Positions 1,841-20,943 of a DNA stretch of 64,000 nt are shown one piece after another. The position numbers and the translations under genes are program-made. This stretch comes from a virus: positions 1 to 64,000 of the IMG/VR virus record IMGVR_UViG_3300028392_000060; one strand, 5' to 3'. Position 1 is the stretch's first letter, and every line of letters starts with the position of its first letter. The notes below the pieces were generated by a model. The model worked only from the letters and a program-made list of their open reading frames with translations. It made no database searches and was not told the origin of the DNA.

Positions 1841-2063
1841 GATATCTTTAGATTATGAATCAGCACATAAATTTGTAGAAAAGAATGCATCACAAGGATT
1901 TTTTTGGGATGGATGGACCATTGTAAAATGGTCTCCAAGTAATAACGGATATATGCAACCTAATGGTATGTTTAAAAATAATAAATGGGGATATTCAAAT
2001 CGCTATAATTTAACTTCCAAAGGTACTTGGGAGATTAGCGATAAATATGCCAACTATATTTAA
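1833..2063 (+). CDS. hypothetical protein, Trp/Tyr/Asn-rich
   Basis: 76 residues, aromatic and Asn-rich (several W and Y, a W-D-G-W segment), with no recognised family. SD TTTGGAGT sits inside the groES-like 3' end. It overlaps both neighbours (by 8 and 17 bases), so it is part of a tightly coupled operon. Confidence 0.65.
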   Translation: MPKISLDYESAHKFVEKNASQGFFWDGWTIVKWSPSNNGYMQPNGMFKNNKWGYSNRYNLTSKGTWEISDKYANYI

Positions 2064-2361
2064 CAAATTAGGAATTGATGAACAAGACGTAAAATGGTAT
2101 CATCTTGCTGCTTGCAAAAATATGTCAATAAATTGGTTTTATGATGATTATGAAATTGATAAAGAGTTAGCAAAACAAGTTGATCAAATTTGTTTACATT
2201 GCCCAGTTATTAAACAATGTCATGCAGAAGGCATTGAAAATAAAGAAAAGGGTGTAAGAGGTGGGGTTTATATGGATCTTGGAAGACCAGATAAACAACA
2301 TAATTCCCATAAATTACCAGAAATATGGAAACAATTAAAGAAGCTTCATGGCAAAAATTAG
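2047..2361 (+). CDS. whiB: WhiB-family Fe-S transcription factor
   Basis: 104 residues with the four-cysteine WhiB signature: C23, then C49-x2-C52-x5-C58, expected to hold a [4Fe-4S] cluster. A G-V-R-G-G-V-Y-M turn follows, corresponding to the G-(V/I)-W-G-G loop of WhiB proteins, then a basic C-terminus. WhiB proteins are confined to actinobacteria and their phages, so this supports an actinobacterial host. Family members act with the primary sigma factor; a role in redirecting host or phage transcription is inference. Confidence 0.92.
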   Translation: MPTIFNKLGIDEQDVKWYHLAACKNMSINWFYDDYEIDKELAKQVDQICLHCPVIKQCHAEGIENKEKGVRGGVYMDLGRPDKQHNSHKLPEIWKQLKKLHGKN

Positions 2362-8989: not shown

Positions 8990-9005
8990 TGTGATAAAAA
9001 TCACA
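8990..9005. promoter_or_regulatory. CRP/GlxR-like palindrome
   Basis: TGTGA-N6-TCACA, a perfect match to the CRP-family half-sites. It lies in the convergent intergenic region, not in front of a gene. Confidence 0.6.
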
Positions 9006-9076
9006 CTTTTTTGTGCATATTTTAGACAATTTTGATACAAATGTACACAATATGTTCACATTTTGAGATTATTCTG

Positions 9077-9092
9077 TGTGATTTTGATCACA
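9077..9092. promoter_or_regulatory. CRP/GlxR-like palindrome
   Basis: TGTGA-N6-TCACA, perfect half-sites, 87 bp from the previous copy. Confidence 0.6.
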
Positions 9093-9142
9093 TTTTAAAT
9101 ATATTTATTTTTAGATACATTTATAAGATCATATACACAAAC

Positions 9143-9177
9143 TTCCAGAGAATTTTATTATGCGTTCGTAATGTCTG
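9143..9177. repeat. bipartite repeat, copy 1
   Basis: TTCCAGAGAA at 9143-9152 and CGTAATGTCTG at 9167-9177, 14 bases apart. The second copy has the same spacing, 94 bp downstream. Confidence 0.65.
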
Positions 9178-9236
9178 GAAAAATATATAGCTCTTCGTAA
9201 TGTTTATTATATGTATATGGATTAAGATTAAAAAAG

Positions 9237-9271
9237 TTCCAGAGAAATTCCCGCCGAGTTCGTAATGTCTG
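9237..9271. repeat. bipartite repeat, copy 2
   Basis: TTCCAGAGAA at 9237-9246 and CGTAATGTCTG at 9261-9271, again 14 bases apart; the spacer sequence differs, so only the two boxes are conserved. Confidence 0.65.
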
Positions 9272-9319
9272 ATTAATTAATTAGCACGACACGACATTTT
9301 ATATATTTAAATAAAGAAA

Positions 9320-10908: not shown

Positions 10909-11090
10909 TATTTATTCTCCTCATCAAAGGCTCCATAACTTGGAGTTATTCCGCTAAGCCACTCATAATAACTTAATTTTCCCCCTAATTCCCAGCATTG
11001 TAAACAGAAAGTGCCAAATTGTTGTGCTACAACATAAGCAGGAATTGGAGAAATTGTTTTACAATTAGTACAAGTTATTCTTTCAGTCAT
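10908..11090 (-). CDS. 60-residue zinc-ribbon protein
   Basis: C-T-N-C near the N-terminus and C-L-Q-C about 20 residues later form a zinc ribbon. SD AAAGGA precedes the ATG, and the TGTCRG-type promoter at 11118-11139 lies directly upstream. Function unknown. Confidence 0.65.
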   Translation of the reverse strand: MTERITCTNCKTISPIPAYVVAQQFGTFCLQCWELGGKLSYYEWLSGITPSYGAFDEENK

Positions 11091-11117: not shown

Positions 11118-11139
11118 ATTGTAGCATAGGGTACTGACA
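11118..11139 (-). promoter_or_regulatory. leftward TGTCRG-N10 promoter 1
   Basis: Minus strand: TGTCAG, 10 bp, TACAAT, with TGC directly before the -10. SD and ATG 11090 follow about 30 bases on. Confidence 0.7.
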
Positions 11140-11144
11140 TTTGG

Positions 11145-11378
11145 CTAGTCCCGCACCTTGTCAGTAGCCTCATCGTAAAGCAACCAGTCTATATCTATAG
11201 AATAGACAATCGTAATTGATTTGTCTAAAAGCTGGAGAACCACATGGTCCCCCTCTGTGTATCCAATTAGTTTAGCATCTTGAATTTGTTCACGACTAAA
11301 AGATCTATCTTCGTAAACGGCGGGAATGTGATTAAAGTAATAAGTATCACTATGAATACTATCCATTATATCAAGCAT
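11145..11378 (-). CDS. hypothetical protein
   Basis: 77 residues from ATG 11378, whose first base overlaps the upstream stop (TAATG) and which has GGAG upstream. A longer hydrophobic N-terminal extension to 11453 runs inside the upstream gene and is probably not translated. Beta-rich, acidic; no family recognised. Confidence 0.55.
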   Translation of the reverse strand: MLDIMDSIHSDTYYFNHIPAVYEDRSFSREQIQDAKLIGYTEGDHVVLQLLDKSITIVYSIDIDWLLYDEATDKVRD

Positions 11379-11592
11379 TAGAATACTCCAATTCATTTTG
11401 TGATAAAGTAAATACAGTAAAATTAACACCATTGTTATAACAGAAGTTAACACAATTTATCAGAGATTCTGATTCATATAGTGGATATCCACCTGTATCG
11501 TAATCATTATCTAAATCAGGATATACTTCAAACATATTTATACCCCCTGGTGATACTGAATAATCTATTTCATATATTCTAAAGGTTTCCAT
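11371..11592 (-). CDS. hypothetical protein
   Basis: 73 residues, Tyr/Asn-rich, predicted beta strands; no family recognised. First gene after the paired CRP-like sites at 11659-11700. Confidence 0.6.
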   Translation of the reverse strand: METFRIYEIDYSVSPGGINMFEVYPDLDNDYDTGGYPLYESESLINCVNFCYNNGVNFTVFTLSQNELEYSNA

Positions 11593-11658
11593 AGGTAGAT
11601 TTTAGCATATCGTAATCGTAAAAGTCTAATCGTAATCTCATATTTTGAGATATATTTC

Positions 11659-11674
11659 AGTGATATATATCACA
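11659..11674. promoter_or_regulatory. CRP/GlxR-like palindrome
   Basis: AGTGA-N6-TCACA; one base from the ideal half-site. Forms a pair with the next site, centres 26 bp apart. Confidence 0.6.
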
Positions 11675-11684
11675 TATCGTAAAG

Positions 11685-11700
11685 TGTGATTTTAATCACA
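11685..11700. promoter_or_regulatory. CRP/GlxR-like palindrome
   Basis: TGTGA-N6-TCACA, perfect. Upstream of the leftward gene starting at 11592. Confidence 0.65.
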
Positions 11701-11714
11701 CCCCCGCGCCCAGC

Positions 11715-11738
11715 TGTCCCACTTTGTCAAGTGGGACA
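11715..11738 (-). terminator. strong hairpin after the 11748 gene
   Basis: Perfect 10-bp stem (11715-11724 with 11729-11738) and a four-base loop, ten bases past the stop of the leftward gene. No T tract, so terminator function is likely but not certain. Confidence 0.6.
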
Positions 11739-11747
11739 CGCAAGGTT

Positions 11748-11951
11748 TTACATATAACTTACTATAAATTCCATAGTCATATGCAAATTACAATCACAAT
11801 CATTTTTTGCAGAATCAAAGTGATCTTGATATTGCTCATAGATAAGTGTTACAAGTTCATCTATAGTGTATGGTTTATGTGTTGTGGTAATTGTGAACCT
11901 CTTCCATATATGAAATAAAACTTTCAAAACTGTGCCAATGTCCATTATCAT
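11748..11951 (-). CDS. hypothetical protein, start uncertain
   Basis: 67 residues from ATG 11951, but that start lies 77 bases inside the upstream gene. A shorter form beginning near 11895 would have GGAAGAGG upstream but no canonical start codon. The C-terminal part is acidic with C-D-C. No family recognised. Confidence 0.45.
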   Translation of the reverse strand: MIMDIGTVLKVLFHIWKRFTITTTHKPYTIDELVTLIYEQYQDHFDSAKNDCDCNLHMTMEFIVSYM

Positions 11952-12240
11952 TTACCATTTGAGTAGTGAAATCTATTTCTACTACTTCGTCCATATAAGG
12001 TGTGTCAGCATTTGCTACATAGATACCGAAGCCTGTTTCGCTATCCCGCCCATCTTTTGTTAGTTGGTCAATTACAATGCGGAGAGCATACGGAACATCT
12101 CCCATATCAGTACGCTTTTTTGCGGCGGTAAGTGCTAACGCTAAATCCTCACGCCAAGTTGTTTCGCCCCAATGTGAATATAGCACAATGTTAGGCATAT
12201 CTAACTCTGTTTTAAATACGAAATTAACTCTTGCTCCCAT
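11875..12240 (-). CDS. hypothetical protein
   Basis: 121 residues from ATG 12240, which has GGAGG upstream and overlaps the stop of the membrane peptide. Contains S-H-W-G-E-T-T-W near residue 24 and acidic C-terminal strands. No family recognised. Confidence 0.6.
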   Translation of the reverse strand: MGARVNFVFKTELDMPNIVLYSHWGETTWREDLALALTAAKKRTDMGDVPYALRIVIDQLTKDGRDSETGFGIYVANADTPYMDEVVEIDFTTQMVNDNGHWHSFESFISYMEEVHNYHNT

Positions 12241-12320
12241 TAAAGTATTCCTCCTATCGCTATAAATACTCCAAGTAATACTGCTAAGATTAAAACTACT
12301 GCCGTTGAGTTCATTATCAT
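12240..12320 (-). CDS. 26-residue membrane peptide
   Basis: After M-I-M-N-S-T the rest is a single Val/Leu/Ile/Ala transmembrane segment ending G-G-I-L. Its TAA overlaps the next ATG (TAATG), and its last codons carry the SD of that gene. Probable small membrane protein and translational coupler. Confidence 0.55.
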   Translation of the reverse strand: MIMNSTAVVLILAVLLGVFIAIGGIL

Positions 12321-12371
12321 ATCCTATCAAATAAGTGGCGGGAAGTCAATTACCCTTCCCGCCCAAGTTAA

Positions 12372-12788
12372 TTAGAGATATTGAGCGATAGACTTCATAG
12401 TGGAAGCATTAACTGTTTCCTCATCTGTCATACGCAAGATGTTAAGAGCGTTTGTGATTTCCTCTTTGGAATTTTTGTATTCATAATTTGCCATTTGGTT
12501 AAACTCACGGGTTGGCTCAACAGGGAAGTTAGAGCCTTTTGTGCTGACATCAAAATCAACATTTAGAGTTTCACTCCAAGAACGATACCCTGTGCGAAGG
12601 TTAGTTGCGGTTGCGATATTAGCGAGAGCGAAGTCTTTTAGACTATCTTGCCAAGCCTTGTATGCTTCTTGGAACTTTGCTTCGTTGGCTTCTTGACCAG
12701 CGTAGTCTATCTCAATTTGGGCTAACTTAGCCTCTAGTGCCTTGATTACCTTTGGTGTTGCCACCTTTACTGTTATTGCTCTAGCCAT
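12372..12788 (-). CDS. hypothetical helical protein
   Basis: 138 residues. An N-terminal basic strand is followed by a Gln/Glu/Ala-rich coiled coil (about 12-55) and a polar tail. SD AAAGGAAA and two tandem TGTCRG promoters (12822 and 12919) lie upstream, so it may be well expressed. No family recognised. Confidence 0.65.
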   Translation of the reverse strand: MARAITVKVATPKVIKALEAKLAQIEIDYAGQEANEAKFQEAYKAWQDSLKDFALANIATATNLRTGYRSWSETLNVDFDVSTKGSNFPVEPTREFNQMANYEYKNSKEEITNALNILRMTDEETVNASTMKSIAQYL

Positions 12789-12821
12789 TTGGTTTCCTTT
12801 GTTAGTTGGGTTGGTAGGATT

Positions 12822-12843
12822 ATTATATCAGGGGGGTCTGACA
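12822..12843 (-). promoter_or_regulatory. leftward TGTCRG-N10 promoter 2
   Basis: Minus strand: TGTCAG, 10 bp, TATAAT, with TGA before the -10. Drives the 138-residue protein gene. Confidence 0.7.
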
Positions 12844-12918
12844 TAAACTTAAGTGCTAGTTCTTACTTACGACATTGGGCTAGAACTCTAGCAAACTGCC
12901 CCTGTTTCGTTGTCCCCT

Positions 12919-12940
12919 ATTATATCATAGGGGTCTGACA
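12919..12940 (-). promoter_or_regulatory. leftward TGTCRG-N10 promoter 3
   Basis: Minus strand: TGTCAG, 10 bp, TATAAT, TGA before the -10. It begins directly at the stop of the 12941 gene (TAATG overlap), about 97 bp upstream of promoter 2. Confidence 0.7.
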
Positions 12941-13168
12941 TTATGCTTCGTGCTTGGGCAAATCAACACGCACATTTTTCTGTATGTTAGAACTAATTAA
13001 CTTACCTTGAAAAGCGACCATCATTTTTGCCAATTTCATTTCATCACCAGATGATAGTTCAATCTGGTTATCATTTAAGACTACATATTCAACGCCATAT
13101 TGAATAGCCTTGCCCAATCCATAGCCCATTTGGGCTTTGGACGGGACTTCTAAAGTAATAACTGCCAT
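12941..13168 (-). CDS. hypothetical protein
   Basis: 75 residues: M-A-V-I-T-L-E-V-P opening, G-Y-G-L-G-K-A-I, helical middle. No family recognised. Its stop codon overlaps the ATG that opens promoter motif 3. Confidence 0.6.
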   Translation of the reverse strand: MAVITLEVPSKAQMGYGLGKAIQYGVEYVVLNDNQIELSSGDEMKLAKMMVAFQGKLISSNIQKNVRVDLPKHEA

Positions 13169-13169
13169 A

Positions 13170-13793
13170 TTAGGATTCCTCTCTTACATCATAAATAGAA
13201 TAATCATTTACATCTACATCAGCACCATAAGTGGATACTGAAAGTTCATCATTTAACATAGTTTCTAAATCATAATTATCGGTTAAAGATACACGCATAA
13301 TTCCACTTACTTCTATTGTGGCAGAAAACTCTATTTCTTTACTTAGTTCAAGATTAAATAAATCTGCGATAGTTGTTAAAGTATCTTGGTCATTACTGTC
13401 ATCATAAGCGTCAATAATTATGTTATGAAGTGTAACTAACTTGTTGTTGAAATCAGCAACATCACTCTTAAGTTGACGGGCTTCACGAAGTTTCCACTCT
13501 AAATCATTAACTTTATCAGTTTGATAAGTTGTTTCGTTATTCTCAATTATCTTGTAGGTAACGAGTAGGTTTGGGTTATATTCTGTTGAAATATCCATTT
13601 GTTCCTCTTTCTTTGTAGTTGGGTCTATTGTAACATCTACCACCGACATCAGTATCATTTGTGTATCTGTCATACATTTTGGACACATATCACTTTGTGG
13701 AAGTCCATTAGATTTAATAGTCATTACAATATGGCTATCGCAATTTGGGCATACATAATCCCATTTAAACCAGGTTTCATTTTTATTTGTCAT
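13170..13793 (-). CDS. zinc-ribbon protein fused across an internal promoter
   Basis: 207 residues. The first 65 contain C-P-N-C and C-P-K-C (zinc ribbon); the rest, from M-D-I-S-T-E-Y, is an acidic coiled-coil protein. The junction is an intact TGTCRG-N10 promoter plus AAAGAGGA SD plus ATG (13598), translated as M-S-V-V-D-V-T-I-D-P-T-T-K-K-E-E-Q. A separate 142-residue product from 13598 is therefore likely. Either two genes fused by loss of a stop, or a deliberate nested arrangement. Confidence 0.65.
   Translation of the reverse strand: MTNKNETWFKWDYVCPNCDSHIVMTIKSNGLPQSDMCPKCMTDTQMILMSVVDVTIDPTTKKEEQMDISTEYNPNLLVTYKIIENNETTYQTDKVNDLEWKLREARQLKSDVADFNNKLVTLHNIIIDAYDDSNDQDTLTTIADLFNLELSKEIEFSATIEVSGIMRVSLTDNYDLETMLNDELSVSTYGADVDVNDYSIYDVREES
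13627..13648 (-). promoter_or_regulatory. leftward TGTCRG-N10 promoter 4, internal to an ORF
   Basis: Minus strand: TGTCGG, 10 bp, TACAAT, TGT before the -10; followed by SD and an in-frame ATG at 13598. Confidence 0.7.
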
Positions 13794-13850
13794 AGCGAGT
13801 ATTTTAGCAGGTTACTCACGGGTAATCAAACGACACGCCGTAAAACTCAG

Positions 13851-13866
13851 GGTGATTTTTATCACA
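13851..13866. promoter_or_regulatory. CRP/GlxR-like palindrome
   Basis: GGTGA-N6-TCACA, flanked on both sides by CGACACGCC (13831 and 13874). Upstream of the leftward gene starting at 13793. Confidence 0.6.
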
Positions 13867-13873
13867 CTCGTAA

Positions 13874-13902
13874 CGACACGCCCGACCTCGGGGGGCGCGG
13901 CC
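13874..13902. repeat. GC-rich cassette element, copy 1
   Basis: CGACACGCC directly followed by CGACCTCGGGGGGCGCGG; one extra G compared with the other copies. Can fold as a short hairpin with an ACCT loop. Very GC-rich against an AT-rich background. Confidence 0.75.
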
Positions 13903-13903
13903 C

Positions 13904-13943
13904 ATGCATAATTATACATTGCAATGCATATTTATACATTGAA
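13904..13943. repeat. two 20-bp tandem repeats beside tRNA-Asp
   Basis: Units 13904-13923 and 13924-13943 differ at only two positions. Each contains ATGCATA and TTATACATTG. Iteron-like or processing-site-like; function unknown. Confidence 0.65.
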
Positions 13944-13949
13944 GCTTTG

Positions 13950-14025
13950 CGATCCGTACGGGATTTGAACCCGTGGTCTCTACAGTGACAGTGTAGTGAA
14001 TTAAACCAAACTATTCTAACGGACC
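13950..14025 (-). tRNA. tRNA-Asp (GUC)
   Basis: Cloverleaf on the minus strand: 7-bp acceptor (GGTCCGT with ACGGATC, one G-T pair), D arm with GG in the loop, anticodon stem CTACA/TGTAG with loop C-T-GTC-A-C, and T stem ACGGG/CCCGT with loop TTCAAAT. No encoded CCA. It lies downstream of the DUF932-type gene and is probably cotranscribed. Confidence 0.92.
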
Positions 14026-14031
14026 TTGCGG

Positions 14032-14054
14032 TGAGCAGTTTTTACACTTGCTCA
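14032..14054. repeat. small hairpin, also present at 19991
   Basis: TGAGCA, 11-base T-rich loop, TGCTCA; the same stem and loop length recur at 19991-20013. It sits between the DUF932-type gene and the tRNA and may be a processing or termination signal. Confidence 0.5.
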
Positions 14055-14067
14055 GGTGTTGCGAATT

Positions 14068-15096
14068 TTATTTCGCTAGTGCTAAGACTTGCTTAACAAT
14101 TTTATTTTTTTCAGCAGTTACAACAGGGTCAAAACCACTTGCGCCTGCCATTAGGCTATCGCCATCTTTTCGGGCTGTGCGATAATAATCTAGGCGTTCT
14201 GTGAGAGCATTTACAACACCCCACGCAGTACCCTTGATATTATTATTGGTAGGCGAATTGTGATAAAGTTCATCAAGCAATACAACCTTATTTTCCCATT
14301 TCTTGATTGAACCCTTTTTGTCCAATTCAGGCTTTGGGTACATCTTGTTAATGATTTCTGAAAACTTTTTATCAGTAACAGAAATTGCGAATAGTTCTTG
14401 CGCTTGCTTTTCAAATTCATCAGCATATGCGAAAGTTAATCCGAGAGCCTCTCGTGCTTGAGCAATTTTACCATCAACAGTTTGTGTATGACGGATTTTG
14501 AAACTCTGCTTTGCTTTTTTCATAGCAAAATTAAGAGTGTTTTGGCACATAACACGAACAGGGGTAATAGCAGATTGAACCGCTACTGAGCCATCGTGTG
14601 AAGTCCAAACAATTAGATAAAGTTTTGTTTCATCGTTCACACCTTTAGGGTCTAATACGATTGTGCGGGGAACGGACATTGTGCCAAACACAACATTGCC
14701 ACCCTTGAGAGAGCCTGCGCTTTCCCAAAATACATCTTGATTTCCATCGTGTAAGTTATCAGCAAACGAAAATAATTCCTCGTTTTGAACTTCTTTATAG
14801 CGTGAACCTACAACGGAGAGAACATCAGTTTGTCCCGCAGTATAAGGGTTATCACGAATTACAAGTTGATTATCCTTGAGAGAGTTCCAATTCTCAGGGA
14901 GATAATCAGCAACAGGAGCAAGGCGAACGTTCCAATTAGATAGTTTAGCACCATCTAACATTTGAGCAGTTGTTACTGCTTCATCTTGATTGAATACCTT
15001 ATTGGCAAAAGAGTGCCAAGCGGGTACTGTGCGGAGATTTACGGCAAGAGAAACTTCTCCGCCTTCAACCTCTGATTTATGAGCCAAGTTGGTCAT
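14068..15096 (-). CDS. DUF932 (phage/plasmid-like) protein
   Basis: 342 residues with the DUF932/TIGR03299 layout: V-P-A-W-H near residue 24, Y-K-E-V-Q-N-E-E-L-F-S-F near 96, P-V-R-V-M-C-Q-N-T-L near 183, and a helical C-terminus with T-A-W-G-V-V-N-A-L-T-E. The family is common on phages and plasmids; biochemical function is unknown. Strong SD AAAGGAAA and TGTCRG promoter 5 lie upstream, with a CRP-like cassette further up, suggesting an early gene. Confidence 0.82.
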   Translation of the reverse strand: MTNLAHKSEVEGGEVSLAVNLRTVPAWHSFANKVFNQDEAVTTAQMLDGAKLSNWNVRLAPVADYLPENWNSLKDNQLVIRDNPYTAGQTDVLSVVGSRYKEVQNEELFSFADNLHDGNQDVFWESAGSLKGGNVVFGTMSVPRTIVLDPKGVNDETKLYLIVWTSHDGSVAVQSAITPVRVMCQNTLNFAMKKAKQSFKIRHTQTVDGKIAQAREALGLTFAYADEFEKQAQELFAISVTDKKFSEIINKMYPKPELDKKGSIKKWENKVVLLDELYHNSPTNNNIKGTAWGVVNALTERLDYYRTARKDGDSLMAGASGFDPVVTAEKNKIVKQVLALAK

Positions 15097-15125
15097 ATGA
15101 TTTCCTTTCTTTGTTTGTTAAATTG

Positions 15126-15147
15126 AGTATAACATATGGCACCGACA
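15126..15147 (-). promoter_or_regulatory. leftward TGTCRG-N10 promoter 5
   Basis: Minus strand: TGTCGG, 10 bp, TATACT, TGT before the -10. A TGGACA box lies 18 bp upstream of the -10, the only clear -35-like hexamer in this promoter family. Confidence 0.75.
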
Positions 15148-15196
15148 TTTGTCCACTTTAAATAATCATTTTAAGACACATTCAACCAATTTTGCG

Positions 15197-15212
15197 TGTG
15201 AGAAATATCACA
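15197..15212. promoter_or_regulatory. CRP/GlxR-like palindrome
   Basis: TGTGA-N6-TCACA, perfect half-sites, upstream of the DUF932-type gene. Confidence 0.65.
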
Positions 15213-15238
15213 GAGATTTTTTCGGCGTGTCGTAAATG

Positions 15239-15267
15239 CGACACGCCCGACCTCGGGGGCGCGGCCC
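15239..15267. repeat. GC-rich cassette element, copy 2
   Basis: CGACACGCC followed by CGACCTCGGGGGCGCGG. The first nine bases also pair with GGCGTGTCG at 15224-15232. Confidence 0.75.
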
Positions 15268-15412
15268 AAAAATTTAATTTTGTCAAGTCAACACGCAGCT
15301 ATTTTTTAAATAAAAAAAATATTTTTAATATAACAATAATGGCCACCGTGTAAAATAATTGTGAAAACACGTTGACCATTAATTGCATTTTATCCCCTCG
15401 TTTAAATATATT

Positions 15413-15568
15413 TTATAAGATCTTTTGTTTTTCTACAATTTTTCTAGCCTTTGCAGATAACGGTTTACCTGGGCAGTTCATATGAAAATAAGTTATTAGC
15501 ATATCTTCTTCATTTGTTGTTGTGGCCCCGCATTTATGGCAGGACCACGATTCTTTTTTATTCTTCAT
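15413..15568 (-). CDS. 51-residue zinc-ribbon protein
   Basis: M-K-N-K-K-E-S-W-S-C-H-K-C-G, a later H-M-N-C, then a basic helix. The ATG at 15568 overlaps the end of the upstream gene by 11 bases. Function unknown. Confidence 0.6.
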   Translation of the reverse strand: MKNKKESWSCHKCGATTTNEEDMLITYFHMNCPGKPLSAKARKIVEKQKIL

Positions 15569-15881
15569 CAGTGTACACGCATTCTGCACAGTCGCATTCC
15601 CATGAATGCGGTAGCCATGCGTCTAAGTGATGCGCTTCTGCAATTGCGGATGCGGGAGCACTTTCTTCTCCACGCCATGACACGCCTTCGGGAAGTTTAA
15701 TCAAGCGAGAATAATCTTCTTCATGATATGCATCAATTGCATCTAGGCAAGGTTGCACCATTGAAGAGGGGACGGGTGGGTAGTGATTACCCTTCAAGTG
15801 AATTTTTAATTGTGTGCGAATATCTATAGCCATATCCGCTAGATCATTTGCAAAAACACTTCCCATATTAGTTATCTCCAT
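15558..15881 (-). CDS. hypothetical protein with C-terminal Cys cluster
   Basis: 107 residues. Y-P-P-V-P-S-S-M, I-K-L-P-E-G-V-S-W and A-H-H-L-D-A-W-L are the kind of motifs seen in a common actinophage protein of unknown function. The end carries C-D-C-A-E-C. Overlaps both neighbours. Confidence 0.65.
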   Translation of the reverse strand: MEITNMGSVFANDLADMAIDIRTQLKIHLKGNHYPPVPSSMVQPCLDAIDAYHEEDYSRLIKLPEGVSWRGEESAPASAIAEAHHLDAWLPHSWECDCAECVYTDEE

Positions 15882-16152
15882 TTTCTATTGAATCAAACAT
15901 ATTTTGAATTTCTAGGGCTTCATCCGCCATTTTATCAAAGTCCTCACCCATTAGCAAGTGCGACACTCTAGTAGCGACTACACTAGCAAGTAAAGTAGAA
16001 TAAGCAAACATCATTTCAGAAATACGATCTAATTTTTCTGAATTACCTTCAGCATAGTCCCAAGCAATTTCACGAGCAGCATTCATCACTTCAATATCAA
16101 TTACTGAATCAGCAGTCGCTTCTCTAATTTCAAAGAAAGTAGAAATACTCAT
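15868..16152 (-). CDS. hypothetical helical protein
   Basis: 94 residues, acidic, almost all helical, no recognised family. Start overlaps the upstream stop. Confidence 0.6.
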   Translation of the reverse strand: MSISTFFEIREATADSVIDIEVMNAAREIAWDYAEGNSEKLDRISEMMFAYSTLLASVVATRVSHLLMGEDFDKMADEALEIQNMFDSIENGDN

Positions 16153-16358
16153 TATTCCACCACCTTTAATAATGCGTAAGAATTATTTTCGTTTAATTCA
16201 TCTAAGATATCTGTTAGTTTAGGAACGATTAACGCCTTAAGCATATCCTCAAGCATAGCCACTTGTTGTTCATATGGGAGAGATAGTAGACGGCGGGCAG
16301 TAGGATTATTTTCATCCAATTCTGTTTCAAACTTTAGCGTGTGAGGGATTTTTACCAT
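16152..16358 (-). CDS. hypothetical protein
   Basis: 68 residues, helical, acidic, with L-P-Y-E-Q-Q-V-A-M-L-E. No family recognised. SD AAAAGGACA and promoter 6 lie directly upstream. Confidence 0.6.
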   Translation of the reverse strand: MVKIPHTLKFETELDENNPTARRLLSLPYEQQVAMLEDMLKALIVPKLTDILDELNENNSYALLKVVE

Positions 16359-16478
16359 TTATTTATTGTCCTTTTCTTTGTTGGGAGTAGTTAGTATATC
16401 ACGAGCCACCGACATTAGTTCGGTGGAGAAAGTGTTATCTATGAAATTATTCCATAGTGTATCAAGTTGATTATTCAT
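16359..16478 (-). CDS. 39-residue protein whose 3' half is a promoter
   Basis: M-N-N-Q-L-D-T-L-W and an acidic helix, then M-S-V-A-R-D-I-L-T-T-P-N-K-E-K-D-N-K, which is promoter 6 plus the SD of the next gene read in frame. Its start adjoins the stop of the 16479 gene. Confidence 0.5.
   Translation of the reverse strand: MNNQLDTLWNNFIDNTFSTELMSVARDILTTPNKEKDNK
16393..16414 (-). promoter_or_regulatory. leftward TGTCRG-N10 promoter 6, inside an ORF
   Basis: Minus strand: TGTCGG, 10 bp, TATACT, TGA before the -10. Translated in the 39-residue ORF. Confidence 0.7.
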
Positions 16479-16682
16479 TTATTCCCCTTCGTCATATTCT
16501 AGGGACATAGGGAAGGCATCTAGCCCCATAAATCCCATATCTTCTTGATCATAGCACTCAGGGCAGACATAGTCATCGCCATATATTTCATATTCATCTA
16601 CGGAGTAAAAAGTTTCTTTAGCCCCGCATATTTCATAGTATAGACACGCTACTACAAAAATTTCATCTTGTTGATTTATCAT
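16479..16682 (-). CDS. 67-residue zinc-ribbon protein
   Basis: From ATG 16682 (AAAGG upstream; an in-frame extension to 16778 only reads through the promoter). A Cys pair at C-L-Y-Y-E-I-C and C-P-E-C about 25 residues later suggest zinc binding. Very acidic. Confidence 0.6.
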   Translation of the reverse strand: MINQQDEIFVVACLYYEICGAKETFYSVDEYEIYGDDYVCPECYDQEDMGFMGLDAFPMSLEYDEGE

Positions 16683-16713
16683 AAGTTTACCTTTCTTGTT
16701 GTTGATATTGGCA

Positions 16714-16735
16714 AGTATAACATAGGGCACCGACA
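16714..16735 (-). promoter_or_regulatory. leftward TGTCRG-N10 promoter 7
   Basis: Minus strand: TGTCGG, 10 bp, TATACT, TGT before the -10. Nearly identical to promoter 5 across the spacer. Confidence 0.72.
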
Positions 16736-16763
16736 CGATCAAACAACACGCCGCAAAACTCAG

Positions 16764-16779
16764 GGTGATTAAAATCACA
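16764..16779. promoter_or_regulatory. CRP/GlxR-like palindrome
   Basis: GGTGA-N6-TCACA, centred about 64 bp upstream of the start predicted for promoter 7, close to the class I activator position (-61.5). Flanked by ACACGCC and by the inverse GGCGTGTCG (16790). Confidence 0.62.
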
Positions 16780-16857
16780 CTCGTAACACGGCGTGTCGGC
16801 TTGACAGCCGCGGCAAAAAATTTGCAGCTTTTGCAAACTACAAATTTATTTTTTTAT

Positions 16858-16968
16858 TTATTCAAATTTATTTTTATATTTATTTTTTCTTGAATAAATT
16901 TTTTTATTTTTAATTGGTGTTGCCGCATTACTGCGACGCAATTCTTGAATGCGTTTTACTTTTTCCAT
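16858..16968 (-). CDS. 36-residue basic peptide
   Basis: M-E-K-V-K-R-I-Q-E-L-R-R then a Lys/Asn-rich tail. GGGGGTAAA precedes the ATG. Possibly RNA- or DNA-binding, but the AT-rich composition makes it uncertain. Confidence 0.35.
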   Translation of the reverse strand: MEKVKRIQELRRSNAATPIKNKKIYSRKNKYKNKFE

Positions 16969-16972
16969 AATT

Positions 16973-17176
16973 TTATTTACCCCCAATTTTACCACCACGA
17001 TACAAAATTTTTGTATGTAATTTCCCGCTTGGCTCTAATAAATTAACAGTTGCGTATTCATTAGCAAATCCCCAATCAACAAAACTGCGATAAGAATTTA
17101 CTGCGTCTAACGCATTATCTAACACCATTGACCAATGCGGTGCTTTGCCATCATAGGCACAAGTTATTTTGTACAT
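16973..17176 (-). CDS. hypothetical protein
   Basis: 67 residues: Y-K-I-T-C-A-Y-D-G, then D-A-V-N-S-Y-R-S-F-V-D-W-G-F-A. Small alpha/beta protein with no recognised family; coupled to the upstream microprotein. Confidence 0.6.
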   Translation of the reverse strand: MYKITCAYDGKAPHWSMVLDNALDAVNSYRSFVDWGFANEYATVNLLEPSGKLHTKILYRGGKIGGK

Positions 17177-17179
17177 TAG

Positions 17180-17269
17180 TTATTTCTCCAAACATTTATT
17201 GCATAGGGCATAATTATTTGAGAAATAAACACGATAACATCTAACGCATTTGCTTAGTTTAGTTTTCAT
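17180..17269 (-). CDS. 29-residue zinc-ribbon microprotein
   Basis: C-V-R-C and C-N-K-C about 15 residues apart with little else, the minimum for a zinc knuckle. TAACTAATG junctions at both ends show tight coupling. Confidence 0.55.
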   Translation of the reverse strand: MKTKLSKCVRCYRVYFSNNYALCNKCLEK

Positions 17270-17457
17270 TAGTTATTCTCCCAATTCTTGAATAGTTGGT
17301 GAAAATCTGCAATTTTTTCCGCAGAAATTTGAGTTGGATTACACTCACAATAATCAAAATCAAAATCTCCGTCTGGTGATGACCAACCTGTGAAACCTTG
17401 ACCATAGCACTCAGGGCAAGTTAAAATTTCGGTGATTACTTCTTTTACTTTAGACAT
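17269..17457 (-). CDS. 62-residue zinc-binding protein
   Basis: From ATG 17457 (GAAAGGA upstream). C-P-E-C-Y-G-Q-G-F near residue 16 and C-E-C about 18 residues later give a DnaJ-type or rubredoxin-like zinc centre. Start overlaps the stop of the promoter-carrying ORF upstream. Confidence 0.6.
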   Translation of the reverse strand: MSKVKEVITEILTCPECYGQGFTGWSSPDGDFDFDYCECNPTQISAEKIADFHQLFKNWENN

Positions 17458-17561
17458 TAGTTGTCCTTTCTTGTTTGACATTTACACTTTGTTAATTGTA
17501 TTCTATCACCCACCACCGACAAGGTGGCGAGTGTTGAACAGTTATCGCATAAGTAAATCAT
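17457..17561 (-). CDS. 34-residue zinc microprotein overlapping promoter 8
   Basis: M-I-Y-L-C-D-N-C, then promoter 8 read in frame as L-S-V-V-G-D-R-I-Q-L, then K-C-K-C-Q-T-R-K-D-N. Both ends overlap neighbouring start/stop codons (TAATG), so the promoter is translated in a real-looking gene with a C2C2 zinc pattern. Confidence 0.55.
   Translation of the reverse strand: MIYLCDNCSTLATLSVVGDRIQLTKCKCQTRKDN
17500..17521 (-). promoter_or_regulatory. leftward TGTCRG-N10 promoter 8, inside an ORF
   Basis: Minus strand: TGTCGG, 10 bp, TAGAAT, TGA before the -10. Lies in the coding frame of the 34-residue microprotein. Confidence 0.65.
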
Positions 17562-17782
17562 TACTCATCTACTTTGATATAAACAGTTGCGAAAAAATCA
17601 GGCTTAGGGTAACCTTCGCCTGTGTAAGTTGGGCGAACTTTACAAGCGAACGCATAAACGCCTTCGCTTAAACCGCAAATATCTTTTCGCAATTTTGCGT
17701 ATTGGATAATTCCGTCTTGACCTGTTCGGGCATAAGAACGGCTACGATAGTATTTTCCCTCTAGGGCTTCTGAGATTAGCAT
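17561..17782 (-). CDS. hypothetical beta-rich protein
   Basis: 73 residues: M-L-I-S-E-A-L-E-G-K-Y-Y-R-S-R-S-Y-A-R-T-G, then strands ending F-F-A-T-V-Y-I-K-V. No family recognised. Coupled at both ends. Confidence 0.6.
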   Translation of the reverse strand: MLISEALEGKYYRSRSYARTGQDGIIQYAKLRKDICGLSEGVYAFACKVRPTYTGEGYPKPDFFATVYIKVDE

Positions 17783-17889
17783 TATTTGCTACCTTCTTTC
17801 TTTGTTGAGTTAATTATAACATTTACCACCGACACGGCAGACTGACGGCGGGTTTCAAGTACGTGTGCCTTGAATTCATCTAGGTTCAT
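17782..17889 (-). CDS. 35-residue protein overlapping promoter 9
   Basis: M-N-L-D-E-F-K-A-H-V then promoter 9 plus SD translated as V-S-V-V-N-V-I-I-N-S-T-K-K-E-G-S-K. Stop overlaps the next ATG. SD GAAGG precedes this ATG; the frame extends to 18066 only through non-coding cassette sequence. Confidence 0.5.
   Translation of the reverse strand: MNLDEFKAHVLETRRQSAVSVVNVIINSTKKEGSK
17813..17834 (-). promoter_or_regulatory. leftward TGTCRG-N10 promoter 9, inside an ORF
   Basis: Minus strand: TGTCGG, 10 bp, TATAAT, TGT before the -10. Confidence 0.72.
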
Positions 17890-17920
17890 TATTTGACCTT
17901 CTTTCTTTCTTGTTATGGCA

Positions 17921-17942
17921 AGTATACCAAAACCCACTGACA
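17921..17942 (-). promoter_or_regulatory. leftward TGTCRG-N10 promoter 10
   Basis: Minus strand: TGTCAG, 10 bp, TATACT, TGG before the -10. Precedes the 35-residue gene. Confidence 0.7.
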
Positions 17943-17991
17943 TTATTCTACTTACTAGCCAGTAATTCCATATTTTGAGACGCTCAAGCGG

Positions 17992-18007
17992 TGTGATAAA
18001 TATCACA
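17992..18007. promoter_or_regulatory. CRP/GlxR-like palindrome
   Basis: TGTGA-N6-TCACA, perfect, directly followed by CGACACGCC (18008-18016). Confidence 0.66.
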
Positions 18008-18061
18008 CGACACGCCCGAAAGATGAATTTTAGATGAATTTTAATCCACACGTAATCCACA

Positions 18062-18087
18062 GACACGCCCGACCTCGGGGGCGCGGC
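18062..18087. repeat. GC-rich cassette element, copy 3
   Basis: GACACGCC followed by CGACCTCGGGGGCGCGG. Next to it, AAAAAATTTGCAGCTTTT (from 18088) is shared with the 16812 region. Confidence 0.75.
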
Positions 18088-18152
18088 AAAAAATTTGCAG
18101 CTTTTTAATTCTGCAAATCTTTTTTATTTTTATTTATTTTTATTTATTTTTT

Positions 18153-18266
18153 TTATTTAAAATTTTTAAAAATTTCTTCAACAATTTTTAACTGTTCATC
18201 GTTAAGATGTTCAATTTGAATTGCATCTGCAAATCCAAAAATATCTTTTTGATTTTCATTAGTCAT
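18153..18266 (-). CDS. 37-residue hypothetical protein
   Basis: M-T-N-E-N-Q-K-D-I-F-G-F, acidic helix, ending V-E-E-I-F-K-N-F-K. Overlaps the stop of the upstream gene by eight bases. Low complexity downstream; function unknown. Confidence 0.45.
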   Translation of the reverse strand: MTNENQKDIFGFADAIQIEHLNDEQLKIVEEIFKNFK

Positions 18267-18453
18267 TGAAACATGCTTCCCAAAAACGATCCGCATCAAA
18301 ATTTGGATTATCGTTTTCAAAAATTGTTATGAAACGATTTACCAAACCATTTTCAAATTCATTTGTAAAAGATGGGCGGGTTTCCAAATTATTTTCTTTT
18401 AAATAATCATTAAGGATTTTAGCCGTAGCGATATAAGTTTTTCTAGTCATCAT
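18259..18453 (-). CDS. small protein, paralogue of 19497-19661
   Basis: 64 residues with M-T-R-K-x-Y-x-A-T-A-x-I-L-N at the start and F-D-A-D-R-F-W-E-A-C-F at the end. This pattern matches a short helical protein common in actinophages (M-T-R-x-x-Y ... F-D-x-x-R-F), function unknown. The second copy at 19497 keeps both ends but has a different middle. Confidence 0.65.
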   Translation of the reverse strand: MMTRKTYIATAKILNDYLKENNLETRPSFTNEFENGLVNRFITIFENDNPNFDADRFWEACFND

Positions 18454-18546
18454 TTATTTATTCTCTTCAATCTCATCTAGTAGTTCCCAAAGAATTGGCT
18501 CTAACGCTTTTGCGCTTTCATCTAATTTTTCTTGTAGTGTTTTCAT
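18454..18546 (-). CDS. 30-residue acidic peptide
   Basis: M-K-T-L-Q-E-K-L-D-E-S-A-K then L-W-E-L-L-D-E-I-E; a single amphipathic helix. Stop adjoins the start of the next gene. Confidence 0.45.
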   Translation of the reverse strand: MKTLQEKLDESAKALEPILWELLDEIEENK

Positions 18547-18753
18547 TTATTTATAGTATTCCATTTCTGTTAGTAAGTGAGCATAACCATCTTTATTAGA
18601 CTTTAGCGATAATTCGCAAGGCTCGCATTTCCATTCATATTTTAATGTTCTACCTGTTCCCAATGTTGCAACAGCCCAATGGGTCATTTTACGAGAACAC
18701 ACAGGGCAGTAGCAAGAAATTTCTTGCCCTAGCCCACCAATTTTAATAGTCAT
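18547..18753 (-). CDS. 68-residue zinc-ribbon protein
   Basis: C-P-V-C near residue 16 and C-E-P-C near 43 form a classic zinc ribbon; the rest has alternating strands. Adjoins genes on both sides. Function unknown. Confidence 0.65.
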   Translation of the reverse strand: MTIKIGGLGQEISCYCPVCSRKMTHWAVATLGTGRTLKYEWKCEPCELSLKSNKDGYAHLLTEMEYYK

Positions 18754-18947
18754 TATTTAACCACGCTTTCTTTAAATTCTTTTTGATTACAAGTTAAGGC
18801 AAGGATTTCACCCTTAGCATTTACGATACGAGCATTTACTATATCGTGTTCATCACTAACATTAGTGATTTCATTTATTAGGTAATTCTCATTTTTCCAA
18901 ATAAAGAGACACCCTACGAATAATTTATTTATAAGTGTTAAAGTCAT
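18753..18947 (-). CDS. hypothetical beta-barrel-like small protein
   Basis: 64 residues from ATG 18947 (TAATG overlap). Alternating hydrophobic strands with G-C-L-F-I-W and A-R-I-V-N-A-K-G-E-I resemble a small SH3-like barrel. Related in character, not sequence, to the 19788 and 20039 proteins. Confidence 0.6.
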   Translation of the reverse strand: MTLTLINKLFVGCLFIWKNENYLINEITNVSDEHDIVNARIVNAKGEILALTCNQKEFKESVVK

Positions 18948-19141
18948 TAGATACACACCACGCATTCACACTTAGGGGCATTAACAGATAATAAAATTTT
19001 TAACAACGCTTTACGCTGTCCAAAATTTAAGCCATAAGTGGATTTACACCCACCATTATTAAAATCGTGTATGATACGATTTTCTAATTCCGCACTAATA
19101 TTTAGTGCCTTACCTATATTTATTTTATTTAGTGTAGTCAT
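18947..19141 (-). CDS. hypothetical protein ending in Cys cluster
   Basis: 64 residues; helical, then K-C-E-C-V-V-C-I at the C-terminus. SD GAAAGG lies upstream; a weak extended -10 (TGC-TAAACT) is at 19177-19182. Unknown family. Confidence 0.58.
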   Translation of the reverse strand: MTTLNKINIGKALNISAELENRIIHDFNNGGCKSTYGLNFGQRKALLKILLSVNAPKCECVVCI

Positions 19142-19330
19142 CTTAGACCACCTTTCTTTATTGTTTAACTATCGTTAGTTTAGCAGACTTTCTGCCGAAA
19201 ATCAAGGCGACACGCCGTAGATTTCTAACTTTTTTTTCTATATTTAATTTTCTATAATGGAATTGTAACATAAAAAATCGCTACTGTCTAGTATACTCGT
19301 GAGTAGTCTCAATATATGGAGCGTGGGCTT

Positions 19331-19346
19331 TGTGATAAAAATCACA
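19331..19346. promoter_or_regulatory. CRP/GlxR-like palindrome
   Basis: TGTGA-N6-TCACA, perfect half-sites with the spacer TAAAAA, identical to the 8990 copy. Confidence 0.66.
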
Positions 19347-19372
19347 AAGATTTTTTTAATCGTACGTAAATG

Positions 19373-19399
19373 CGACACGCCCGACCTCGGGGGCGCGGC
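19373..19399. repeat. GC-rich cassette element, copy 4
   Basis: CGACACGCC followed by CGACCTCGGGGGCGCGG, identical to copy 2 in this core. Confidence 0.75.
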
Positions 19400-19496
19400 G
19401 AAAAACGAACAGATGTTCGCATTAAAAAAATAGCTGTAAAAAAAATTAAGCAGTTTTAAAACTTACTTAGGTTTTTATTTTTTAAACGTTTAAATT

Positions 19497-19661
19497 TTTA
19501 AAACACTCTTCCCAAAATCTATCGCTATCAAATCTTTCGTTATCAGCGAAAAACATTTCGGAAAAATCATTTACTAAATCTTCAAACACTTCTAATTTCA
19601 TTTCGCCACCATAAGAATTTAAAATCTCTGCGGTTGCTACGTAGTCTTTTCTTGTCATCAT
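19497..19661 (-). CDS. 54-residue paralogue of the 18259 protein
   Basis: M-M-T-R-K-D-Y-V-A-T-A-E-I-L-N ... F-D-S-D-R-F-W-E-E-C-F. SD AAAAGGAAAAG precedes it. Preceded by the structured RNA candidate, which would form its 5' leader. Confidence 0.62.
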
Positions 19662-19692
19662 TTTTGTTCTTTTCCTTTTCTTTAGTTAATAG

Positions 19693-19772
19693 ATTAAGTG
19701 GGGCATAGGTTGATTACGGAGACTTACTCGCACTCTTGCCTTAAGACTCAGCGAAGCCCGACCCACTTAATT
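19693..19772 (-). ncRNA. structured leader or small RNA candidate
   Basis: A perfect 10-bp stem (19693-19702 with 19762-19771) encloses 59 GC-balanced bases that can form inner helices (for example GAGACTTA with TAAGACTC around one mismatch). On the minus strand a TGC-TATAAT extended -10 (19779-19787) predicts a start at about 19772, exactly the foot of the stem. No tRNA T-loop and no family recognised. It ends about 30 bases before the 19661 start codon. Confidence 0.5.
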
Positions 19773-19778
19773 ATATTT

Positions 19779-19787
19779 ATTATAGCA
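19779..19787 (-). promoter_or_regulatory. extended -10 promoter for the structured RNA
   Basis: Minus strand TGC directly before TATAAT; no convincing -35 and no TGTCRG box. It overlaps the stop of the 19788 gene. Confidence 0.45.
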
Positions 19788-19958
19788 TTACTTAGATGTT
19801 TTAACCATTGCTAAACGCTTTGAGCCATTTGCTAAAGTTAAACCAACACGAGTTACTTTGTTAGAAATTGGAGCGAAAGAATTTATTCGTCCAGTAATTC
19901 CAGTTGTTGATGTTGTGAATAAATCACCGATTTGGTAAGTGTATCCTTGTATTGTCAT
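19788..19958 (-). CDS. 56-residue beta protein, paralogue of 20039
   Basis: M-T-I-Q-G-Y-T-Y-Q-I-G-D-L-F-T-T, T-G-R-I, P-I-S-N-K-V-T-R-V-G-L. Alternating strands suggest a small barrel. Highly similar to the next protein upstream; tandem duplication. Confidence 0.62.
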   Translation of the reverse strand: MTIQGYTYQIGDLFTTSTTGITGRINSFAPISNKVTRVGLTLANGSKRLAMVKTSK

Positions 19959-19990
19959 TTATTTTATATCCTTTTCTTTTGTTGGGTTGT

Positions 19991-20013
19991 TGAGCAGTTT
20001 TATATCTTGCTCA
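19991..20013. repeat. small hairpin, second copy of 14032
   Basis: TGAGCA, 11-base loop, TGCTCA, with a loop similar to the 14032 copy; located between the two paralogous barrel genes. Confidence 0.5.
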
Positions 20014-20018
20014 GGATA

Positions 20019-20037
20019 TTTAGGGTATTTCCCTAAA
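20019..20037 (-). terminator. hairpin after the 20039 gene
   Basis: TTTAGGG and CCCTAAA form a perfect 7-bp stem with a five-base loop just past the leftward stop codon; weak terminator. Confidence 0.5.
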
Positions 20038-20038
20038 C

Positions 20039-20203
20039 TTATGCGAGTGAAACTGTTGTGTAACGCTCTGTTCCATCAACATCAAGCAGAACACGAGTTA
20101 GTGTTTTGCTAATTGGTTCAATAGCCTTGATAACGCCTGTTACCTTGCTTTTTTGTGTAGTGAATAAATCACCGATTTGGTAAGTCTTGTTATTTATAGT
20201 CAT
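20039..20203 (-). CDS. 54-residue beta protein, paralogue of 19788
   Basis: M-T-I-N-N-K-T-Y-Q-I-G-D-L-F-T-T, T-G-V-I, P-I-S-K-T-L-T-R-V-L-L. SD AAAAGGAAA; promoter 11 directly upstream. Function unknown. Confidence 0.65.
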   Translation of the reverse strand: MTINNKTYQIGDLFTTQKSKVTGVIKAIEPISKTLTRVLLDVDGTERYTTVSLA

Positions 20204-20235
20204 TTTTTTCCTTTTCTTTTGTTGTTGTTAGTGAT

Positions 20236-20257
20236 AGTCTACCATAGACTACCGACA
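20236..20257 (-). promoter_or_regulatory. leftward TGTCRG-N10 promoter 11
   Basis: Minus strand: TGTCGG, 10 bp, TAGACT, TGG before the -10. Confidence 0.68.
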
Positions 20258-20914: not shown

Positions 20915-20943
20915 ATTATAGCACACAAAATCGGAAAAGTCAA
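20915..20943 (-). promoter_or_regulatory. sigma70-like leftward promoter
   Basis: Minus strand TTGACT, 17 bp, TATAAT with TGC before the -10. Unlike the other leftward promoters it has a proper -35 and no TGTCRG box. Confidence 0.65.

What the first reader, a model, noticed from the sequence alone, without database searches (positions are those of the whole stretch)
11118..20257. Eleven leftward promoters with a fixed TGTCRG-N10-TANNNT architecture
On the minus strand TGTC(G/A)G stands exactly 10 bp from a TANNNT -10 in all eleven cases, and all eleven have TGN directly before the -10. That places the box at about -28 to -23, too close for a sigma70 -35. The rightward genes do not use it. It may be a binding site for a phage or host activator overlapping the spacer, a variant sigma, or a repressor site comparable to the stoperators and start-associated sequences of other actinophages.
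Basis: partly seen in the sequence, partly recalled or inferred. Interest (0 to 1): 0.82.

Follow-up and report, generated by a model that had tools for sequence, protein, structure and literature searches.

The report
Phage early promoters with fixed spacer box
A large family of freshwater phages appears to switch on its early genes from about a dozen look-alike promoters, each with the same short DNA word at exactly the same distance from the polymerase's start signal and some with a second, helically spaced site for a host-type regulator, which points to an undescribed way for a virus to direct its host's transcription machinery.

Summary
All eleven TGTCRG-N10-TANNNT sites exist, all on the minus strand, all with TGn, none elsewhere in the 73.5-kb record. 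Ten lie shortly upstream of a start codon. The window is an AT-rich relative of Streptomyces Stanwilliamsviridae phages. In 80 related viral contigs the forward strand has 971 sites at spacing 10 against 12 at 9 and 3 at 11. A strong -10 follows TGTCAG at offset 10 in 699 cases, at most 7 at any other offset. Free-standing boxes are at chance level, so these are not stoperators. A -35 (TTGA, spacer 17/18) occurs in only 17%, and those sites have weaker -10s: the box is a rigid promoter element that mostly replaces the -35. New here: about 29% of these promoters also carry a CRP/GlxR-type palindrome (TGTGA-N6-TCACA) phased at 10.5 bp, centred near -64, -74 and -84 (Rayleigh p about 3e-23), as in class-I activation; no phage searched encodes a CRP. 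No phage sigma factor was found. Best reading: host sigmaA-RNA polymerase helped by a spacer-bound activator, probably phage-encoded. Its identity is open (a MerR/BldC-like protein and WhiB are candidates). Nothing was tested experimentally.

The parts
11118..11139 (-). box promoter TGTCAG-N10-TACAAT of gene 10908-11090
12822..12843 (-). box promoter TGTCAG-N10-TATAAT, proximal promoter of gene 12372-12788
12919..12940 (-). box promoter TGTCAG-N10-TATAAT, second, distal promoter upstream of 12822-12843; no own start codon with ribosome-binding site
13627..13648 (-). box promoter TGTCGG-N10-TACAAT; ATG 28 nt after the -10
15126..15147 (-). box promoter TGTCGG-N10-TATACT of the DUF932 gene 14068-15096
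16393..16414 (-). box promoter TGTCGG-N10-TATACT of gene 16152-16358
16714..16735 (-). box promoter TGTCGG-N10-TATACT; also has a -35-like TTGATC at 16737-16742 (spacer 17)
17500..17521 (-). box promoter TGTCGG-N10-TAGAAT of gene 17269-17481 (or its internal start near 17457)
17813..17834 (-). box promoter TGTCGG-N10-TATAAT of gene 17561-17782
17921..17942 (-). box promoter TGTCAG-N10-TATACT; ATG 31 nt after the -10
20236..20257 (-). box promoter TGTCGG-N10-TAGACT of gene 20039-20203
17992..18007 (.). CRP/GlxR-like palindrome TGTGATATTTATCACA, centre 73.5 bp upstream of the -10 of promoter 17921-17942
16764..16779 (.). CRP/GlxR-like palindrome TGTGATTTTAATCACC, centre 52.5 bp upstream of the -10 of promoter 16714-16735
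15197..15212 (.). CRP/GlxR-like palindrome TGTGATATTTCTCACA, centre 73.5 bp upstream of the -10 of promoter 15126-15147
13851..13866 (.). CRP/GlxR-like palindrome TGTGATAAAAATCACC, centre 52.5 bp upstream of the -10 of the box-less promoter 13801-13829
13801..13829 (-). box-less promoter TTGATT-N17-TAAAAT with TGn, before ATG 13793
20915..20943 (-). box-less promoter TTGACT-N17-TATAAT with TGn, first of the block
19177..19205 (-). box-less promoter TTGATT-N17-TAAACT with TGn, before gene 18947-19141
2047..2361 (+). WhiB-like transcription factor, a candidate co-factor; also in nearly all relatives

Best explanation
The eleven sites are promoters of the leftward early genes, read by host RNA polymerase with its housekeeping sigma factor. 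SigmaA regions 2 and 3 read the extended -10 (TGnTANNNT). The box AATGTCRGTSS, at about -30 to -18, is a rigidly placed extra promoter element that in most cases takes over the role of the -35. Most likely an activator binds this asymmetric site in the spacer, as a monomer, and touches the polymerase, so that the genes come on together. The activator is probably phage-encoded. A subset of the same promoters is probably also driven by a host CRP/GlxR-type protein bound at helically phased upstream sites (class-I geometry). Shown by sequence: the promoter class, its strict geometry, its concentration in one block, the optional -35 and the phased palindromes. Inferred: positive action, phage origin of the box reader, host CRP as second factor, early timing.
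For: Spacing: 971 sites at 10 against 12 at 9 and 3 at 11 in 80 relatives; exact strong -10s after TGTCAG: 699 at offset 10, at most 7 at any other offset 0-39. The box is placed more rigidly than the -35, which is found at both spacers 17 and 18. Non-redundant logo has TGn and -10 but no general -35. TTGA -35 in 67 of 396 non-redundant sites, with weaker -10s there (61% against 81%, Fisher p 0.0007), so box, -35 and -10 serve one function. Start codons 25-40 nt downstream. Free boxes at chance level. Gradient from Streptomyces relatives with a -35 and a trace of TGTC at the same position (6 of 37) to freshwater phages with the box in place of the -35. CRP-like palindromes phased at 10.5 bp, 370 of 485 lying 40-112 bp upstream of such a -10. 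No phage sigma region 2, no phage CRP-type HTH. No box regulon in genomes of one candidate host order.
Against: No transcription start was mapped. Nothing in the sequence proves activation rather than repression. A remotely related 63-kb phage of 54% G+C (G020) shares the box without a detectable MerR-like candidate, which also fits a host reader. The host is unknown, so the host-regulon test used only a guessed order. Counts include related promoters; redundancy was reduced, not modelled on a tree.
Confidence: 0.58

Rival explanations
1. The box is an operator in the promoter spacer for a phage repressor that shuts off the early genes later in infection; the extended -10 alone drives the promoters.
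For: A spacer position is classical for repressors; the box can coexist with a -35; extended -10 promoters can work without a -35 (stated for E. coli in PMC2988021).
Against: A repressor tolerates shifts of a few bases, but the spacing is fixed at 10 over 971 sites. No free or duplicated operators. The -35 is mostly missing where the box is present.
Confidence: 0.18
2. The box is read by a host protein (a host activator or a part of host RNA polymerase), which the phages exploit; no viral reader exists.
For: Genes expressed first would have no viral protein available. A 63-kb phage of 54% G+C with few shared genes uses the same box. In one host-like subclade the carD promoter has the exact architecture.
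Against: In six complete genomes of the candidate order the architecture occurs 16 times against 15 in reversed controls; the carD match is not conserved across the order. The box is only a trace in Streptomyces relatives.
Confidence: 0.2
3. A phage-encoded sigma factor reads the box as its own -35.
For: Isolated phages of Nanopelagicales, another family, encode a sigma-70 factor (PMC10202952). Fixed spacing fits a sigma factor.
Against: No sigma region 2 in 17 genomes, region 4 only below the cut-off, in a 48-aa HTH also present in Samisti12. The -10 and TGn are standard sigmaA, and a standard -35 at spacer 17/18 coexists with the box.
Confidence: 0.02
4. The box is a WhiA(-WhiB) site used through phage WhiB.
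For: TGTC is the reverse complement of GACA, part of the WhiA word GACAC; these phages encode WhiB.
Against: The base before TGTC is A in 63-76% and G in only 4-6% of sites, so the site is mostly ATGTC, not GTGTC. The WhiA word is from memory.
Confidence: 0.02

Closest known systems
T4 middle promoters (MotA box, AsiA/MotA sigma appropriation)
   Same: Short asymmetric phage-specific box that replaces the -35, together with a standard -10 and often TGn (PMC2988021).
   Different: MotA box is wwwTGCTTtA centred at -30, 12 +/- 1 bp from the -10; here TGTCRG centred near -25.5, exactly 10 bp. AsiA removes sigma region 4 from the -35; here a -35 coexists in 17% of sites. No MotA or AsiA homologue was searched for by profile.
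MerR-type spacer-binding activators (CueR, BmrR) and BldC
   Same: Control from the spacer between -35 and -10; a group-wide phage protein (phrog_9440) has a MerR/BldC-type winged HTH in its model.
   Different: MerR sites are dyads in a 19-20-bp spacer (own knowledge); here a single asymmetric box and a 17/18-bp spacer where a -35 exists. The link protein-box is untested and the fold match is not significant (E 0.07).
CRP / GlxR class-I activation
   Same: Site equals the GlxR consensus TGTGANNTANNTCACA (PMC4254451) and lies upstream on one helical face.
   Different: Centres near -64, -74 and -84 if the -10 starts at -12, about 3 bp further than the E. coli -61.5 series (own knowledge). Not known to me for native phage early promoters of actinobacteria.
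Mycobacteriophage stoperators and start-associated sequences
   Same: Repeated asymmetric sequences, mostly in one orientation, near genes of actinobacterial phages (PMC9283540, PMC3203893).
   Different: Stoperators also lie in intergenic spaces without promoters; SAS is GGGATAGGAGCCC immediately upstream of gene starts. Here each functional copy is tied to a -10.
Early promoters of Streptomyces Stanwilliamsviridae (Samisti12, Jay2Jay)
   Same: Syntenic leftward block, extended -10, trace of TGTC at the same register.
   Different: They keep a TTG-type -35, use CTGnTAGACT, have the full box hardly at all and almost no CRP-like palindromes.

Membership tests
SigmaA (sigma70-type) promoters | TANNNT -10, TGn, short distance to a start codon | tested here: met
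   All eleven sites; -10 to ATG distance mostly 25-40 nt in relatives
SigmaA (sigma70-type) promoters | -35 TTGACA-like at spacer 16-19 | tested here: inconclusive
   TTGA at spacer 17/18 in 67 of 396 non-redundant sites, absent in the rest
T4 MotA-box middle promoters | box wwwTGCTTtA centred at -30, 12 +/- 1 bp from the -10 | tested here: not met
   TGTCRG, exactly 10 bp from the -10 (definition)
T4 MotA-box middle promoters | MotA and AsiA proteins | not tested
   No profile search for these two families was made
Stoperators (cluster A) | copies in promoters and also free-standing between genes | tested here: not met
   1212 TGTCRG in blocks, 957 with the -10; the other 255 against 208 expected by chance
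Start-associated sequences (cluster K) | GGGATAGGAGCCC immediately upstream of the gene start | tested here: not met
   Different word, about 45-60 nt upstream of the start codon and upstream of a -10
CRP/GlxR class-I sites | TGTGANNTANNTCACA palindrome | tested here: met
   134 distinct sequences, T and A most frequent at the two centre positions
CRP/GlxR class-I sites | centre on one helical face upstream of the promoter | tested here: met
   Period 10.5 bp, Rayleigh p about 3e-23, n = 109; control palindromes flat
CRP/GlxR class-I sites | bound by a cAMP-dependent CRP protein that activates | not testable with these tools
   No CRP-type HTH in the phages; four candidate host genomes have one each over the cut-off
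Phage alternative sigma factor | sigma region 2 and region 4 in the phage genome | tested here: not met
   (some records are fragments)
MerR-type spacer regulation | dyad operator in a 19-20-bp spacer | tested here: not met
   Box is asymmetric, spacer 17/18 where a -35 exists
MerR-type spacer regulation | MerR-type protein encoded with the promoters | tested here: inconclusive
   P0002 (phrog_9440) has a MerR/BldC-like HTH in its model, best E 0.07, probability 0.97; G020 lacks it
WhiA site | GTGTC (GACAC) at the box | tested here: not met
   G precedes TGTC in only 4-6% of non-redundant sites

The most novel reading that the evidence does not exclude
These phages encode a new kind of transcription activator that binds the promoter spacer as a monomer in one fixed register, replaces the -35 contact of host sigmaA, and works together with host CRP bound at helically phased class-I sites, so that early phage genes answer both to a viral switch and to the host's cAMP or nutrient state.
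Probability: 0.28. Interest if true: 0.8.

Novelty: new variant of a known kind. Interest (0 to 1): 0.62.

Why it matters
Phages of abundant freshwater actinobacteria are known almost only from sequence, and how they take over host transcription is unknown. This gives a precise, testable promoter code found in about a hundred related phage contigs, with a graded series from Streptomyces phages (-35 plus a trace of the box) to freshwater phages (box instead of -35). It also suggests that native phage early promoters read a host CRP-type regulator, which would tie infection to the host's nutritional state. The code can also be used to find early genes in uncultured phages.

Tried and rejected
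Host regulon: a conserved carD promoter with the exact architecture looked decisive but is limited to a subclade, and counts in six complete genomes equal the controls. Phage sigma factor: none. WhiA site: wrong base before TGTC. Stoperators: no free copies. DNA match to known phages: none. Host from genome collection: three hits, in MAGs labelled Methylophilaceae, cyanobacterium and Actinomycetota, so no host call. Gene content against box presence did not single out a regulator. Early proteins of the block: almost no family matches. Fold of the MerR-like candidate: right fold class but not significant. Literature: no description of this promoter type found, in an open-access library only.
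Full report
Observation. The pattern TGTCRG-N10-TANNNT occurs eleven times in the window, always on the minus strand between 11118 and 20257; shuffles give 1.14 on average and 4 at most. The whole 73,470-base record has no further copy. All eleven have TGn before the -10, and the aligned sequences show no conserved -35. A matrix built without the site being scored gives 19-29 bits; the best other place in the record has 15.6 and lies in a structural gene. Ten of eleven stand shortly before a start codon; the eleventh (12919-12940) is a second, distal promoter upstream of 12822-12843.

What the sequence is. No known phage matches at the DNA level. By protein, the DUF932 gene (14068-15096) leads to 80 IMG/VR contigs at 51-93% identity and to Streptomyces phages such as Samisti12 and Jay2Jay. 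These share the order: leftward block, glycosyltransferase, ribonucleotide reductase, then virion genes. In Samisti12 the outer part of the leftward block is annotated at both ends of the record, that is, in a terminal repeat. The window is therefore an AT-rich (35% G+C) relative of Stanwilliamsviridae, and the promoters belong to what should be the early block (inference from synteny). WhiB is in 19 of 20 records searched.

Conservation and spacing. On the coding strand of the 80 relatives there are 971 matches at spacing 10, against 12 at 9 and 3 at 11; reversed controls give 4-10. An exact TATAAT, TACAAT or TATACT follows TGTCAG at offset 10 in 699 cases and at no other offset from 0 to 39 more than 7 times. 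Records reached through a different gene have the same clusters: 16, 14, 17 and 17 sites in one orientation in G226, G227, G235 and G236. Around the replication genes the motif is nearly absent: 7 hits in 80 loci, six of them one promoter-like site before ssb/dnaE on the rightward strand.

Promoter element, not free operator. In the blocks there are 1212 TGTCRG, of which 957 carry the -10 at the fixed distance; the other 255 are close to the 208 expected, and the opposite strand has 96. So there are no stoperator-like copies. A -35-like TTGA stands at spacer 17 or 18 in 67 of 396 non-redundant sites, against 0-5 at other offsets. Sites with it have weaker -10s (61% against 81% strong; Fisher p 0.0007). 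The -35 is thus part of the same promoters but optional, and the box is placed more rigidly than the -35 itself.

Evolutionary gradient. In nine Streptomyces relatives, 37 non-redundant leftward promoters have a TTG-like -35 and an extended -10, CTGnTAGACT. TGTC stands exactly at the box position in 6 (nominal p about 7e-9) and a C is conserved there at 70%. G019 and L087-L088 are intermediate, with -35s and some boxes. In the freshwater clade the box is nearly universal and the -35 mostly lost. This suggests that the box took over from the -35 (inference).

A second, unexpected layer. The palindrome TGTGA-N6-TCACA is concentrated in the same block: of 485 copies of its core, 370 lie 40-112 bp upstream of a box-type or TTGA-type -10. 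Distances from centre to the -10 peak at 52.5, 62.5, 72.5, 84.5 and 95.5 bp. The Rayleigh test at a period of 10.5 bp gives p about 3e-23 for 109 non-redundant pairs, and other periods fit worse. Control palindromes show no such pattern. The consensus, with T and A most frequent at the two centre positions, agrees with the GlxR site TGTGANNTANNTCACA (PMC4254451). In the window it stands before box promoters 17942, 16735 and 15147 and before the box-less promoter at 13801-13829. No phage searched encodes a CRP-type HTH, while four genomes of a candidate host order each have one over the cut-off. The geometry is that of class-I activation by a CRP-type protein; binding is not shown. The element is almost absent from the Streptomyces relatives, so it looks like an addition of the freshwater clade.

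Who reads the box. A phage sigma factor is not found. WhiA is unlikely because TGTC is preceded by A, rarely by G. A host regulon is not supported in the one candidate order examined, but a remotely related 63-kb phage with 54% G+C shares the box, so a host reader remains possible. Among phage proteins, a 161-aa family (phrog_9440) is present in the whole group and 39% identical in Samisti12. Its model has a MerR/BldC-type winged HTH, best hits at probability 0.97 but non-significant E. MerR-type proteins act on the promoter spacer, which fits, but this is a lead only: no such protein was detected in G020, which has WhiB.

Mechanism. Best reading: host sigmaA-RNA polymerase recognises TGn and the -10; an activator on the box, probably viral, replaces or supports the -35 contact; in about 29% of promoters (100 of 339) a CRP-type dimer upstream, on one helical face, adds class-I activation. 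The logic resembles T4 sigma appropriation, where a MotA box centred at -30 replaces the -35 and lies 12 +/- 1 bp from the -10 (PMC2988021; PMC6755090). It differs in sequence, in register and in coexisting with a -35. The main rivals are a host reader and a spacer operator for early shut-off.

Limits. No transcript data. Related promoters inflate all counts; redundancy was reduced but not modelled on a tree, and the quoted p-values assume independence. The letters at the box and -10 positions of the logo are fixed by the search pattern; the offset tests are not. The host is unknown. Statements on WhiA, MerR dyads and E. coli CRP positions are from general knowledge.

Noticed in passing
window minus strand, starting about 19397, 18085, 15264 and 13902 (about 24 nt each): Four copies of a GC-rich element CGCGCCCCCGAGGTCGGGCGTGTC with an inverted repeat CCCGA-GG-TCGGG, in otherwise AT-rich intergenic DNA upstream of promoters (counts). 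Function unknown, perhaps terminator or operator.
   Followed up: partly
window 20950, 19213 and 13836 (minus strand) and relatives: A conserved word CGGCGTGTCG directly upstream of TTGA -35s (GTGTCG-N0-2-TTGA: 187 forward copies, 0 in the reversed control). It contains GTGTC (GACAC on the other strand), the word remembered for WhiA, in phages that encode WhiB.
   Followed up: partly
window 8958-9275: Intergenic stretch between the converging arms with two perfect CRP-like palindromes (8990-9005, 9077-9092) and repeated (T)TCGTAATGTCTG-like words.
   Followed up: no
window 16858-16998 (minus); L137:3452-3583: Small basic protein (43-46 aa, RIQELRRSNAATPIKNKKIYSRK) conserved in the block and matching several unknown PHROG families.
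   Followed up: partly
window 13793-13829 and about 11592-11620 (minus): Promoters whose -10 ends 6-7 nt before the ATG, suggesting leaderless messages.
   Followed up: no
L376-L388 (candidate host genomes): In a subclade of 1.3-Mb actinobacterial genomes the carD promoter reads TGTCRG-N6-GCTGNTAGAAT, the same architecture as in the phages; other members of the order keep only the extended -10.
   Followed up: yes
L363-L366 (G020) and L371-L372 (G026): A 63-kb phage of 54% G+C, few genes in common with the window, has four strong box promoters, one apparently leaderless.
   Followed up: partly
L374, L373: A 110-kb phage contig of this family is filed in a cyanobacterial MAG and a fragment in a Methylophilaceae MAG: probable binning errors.
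   Followed up: no
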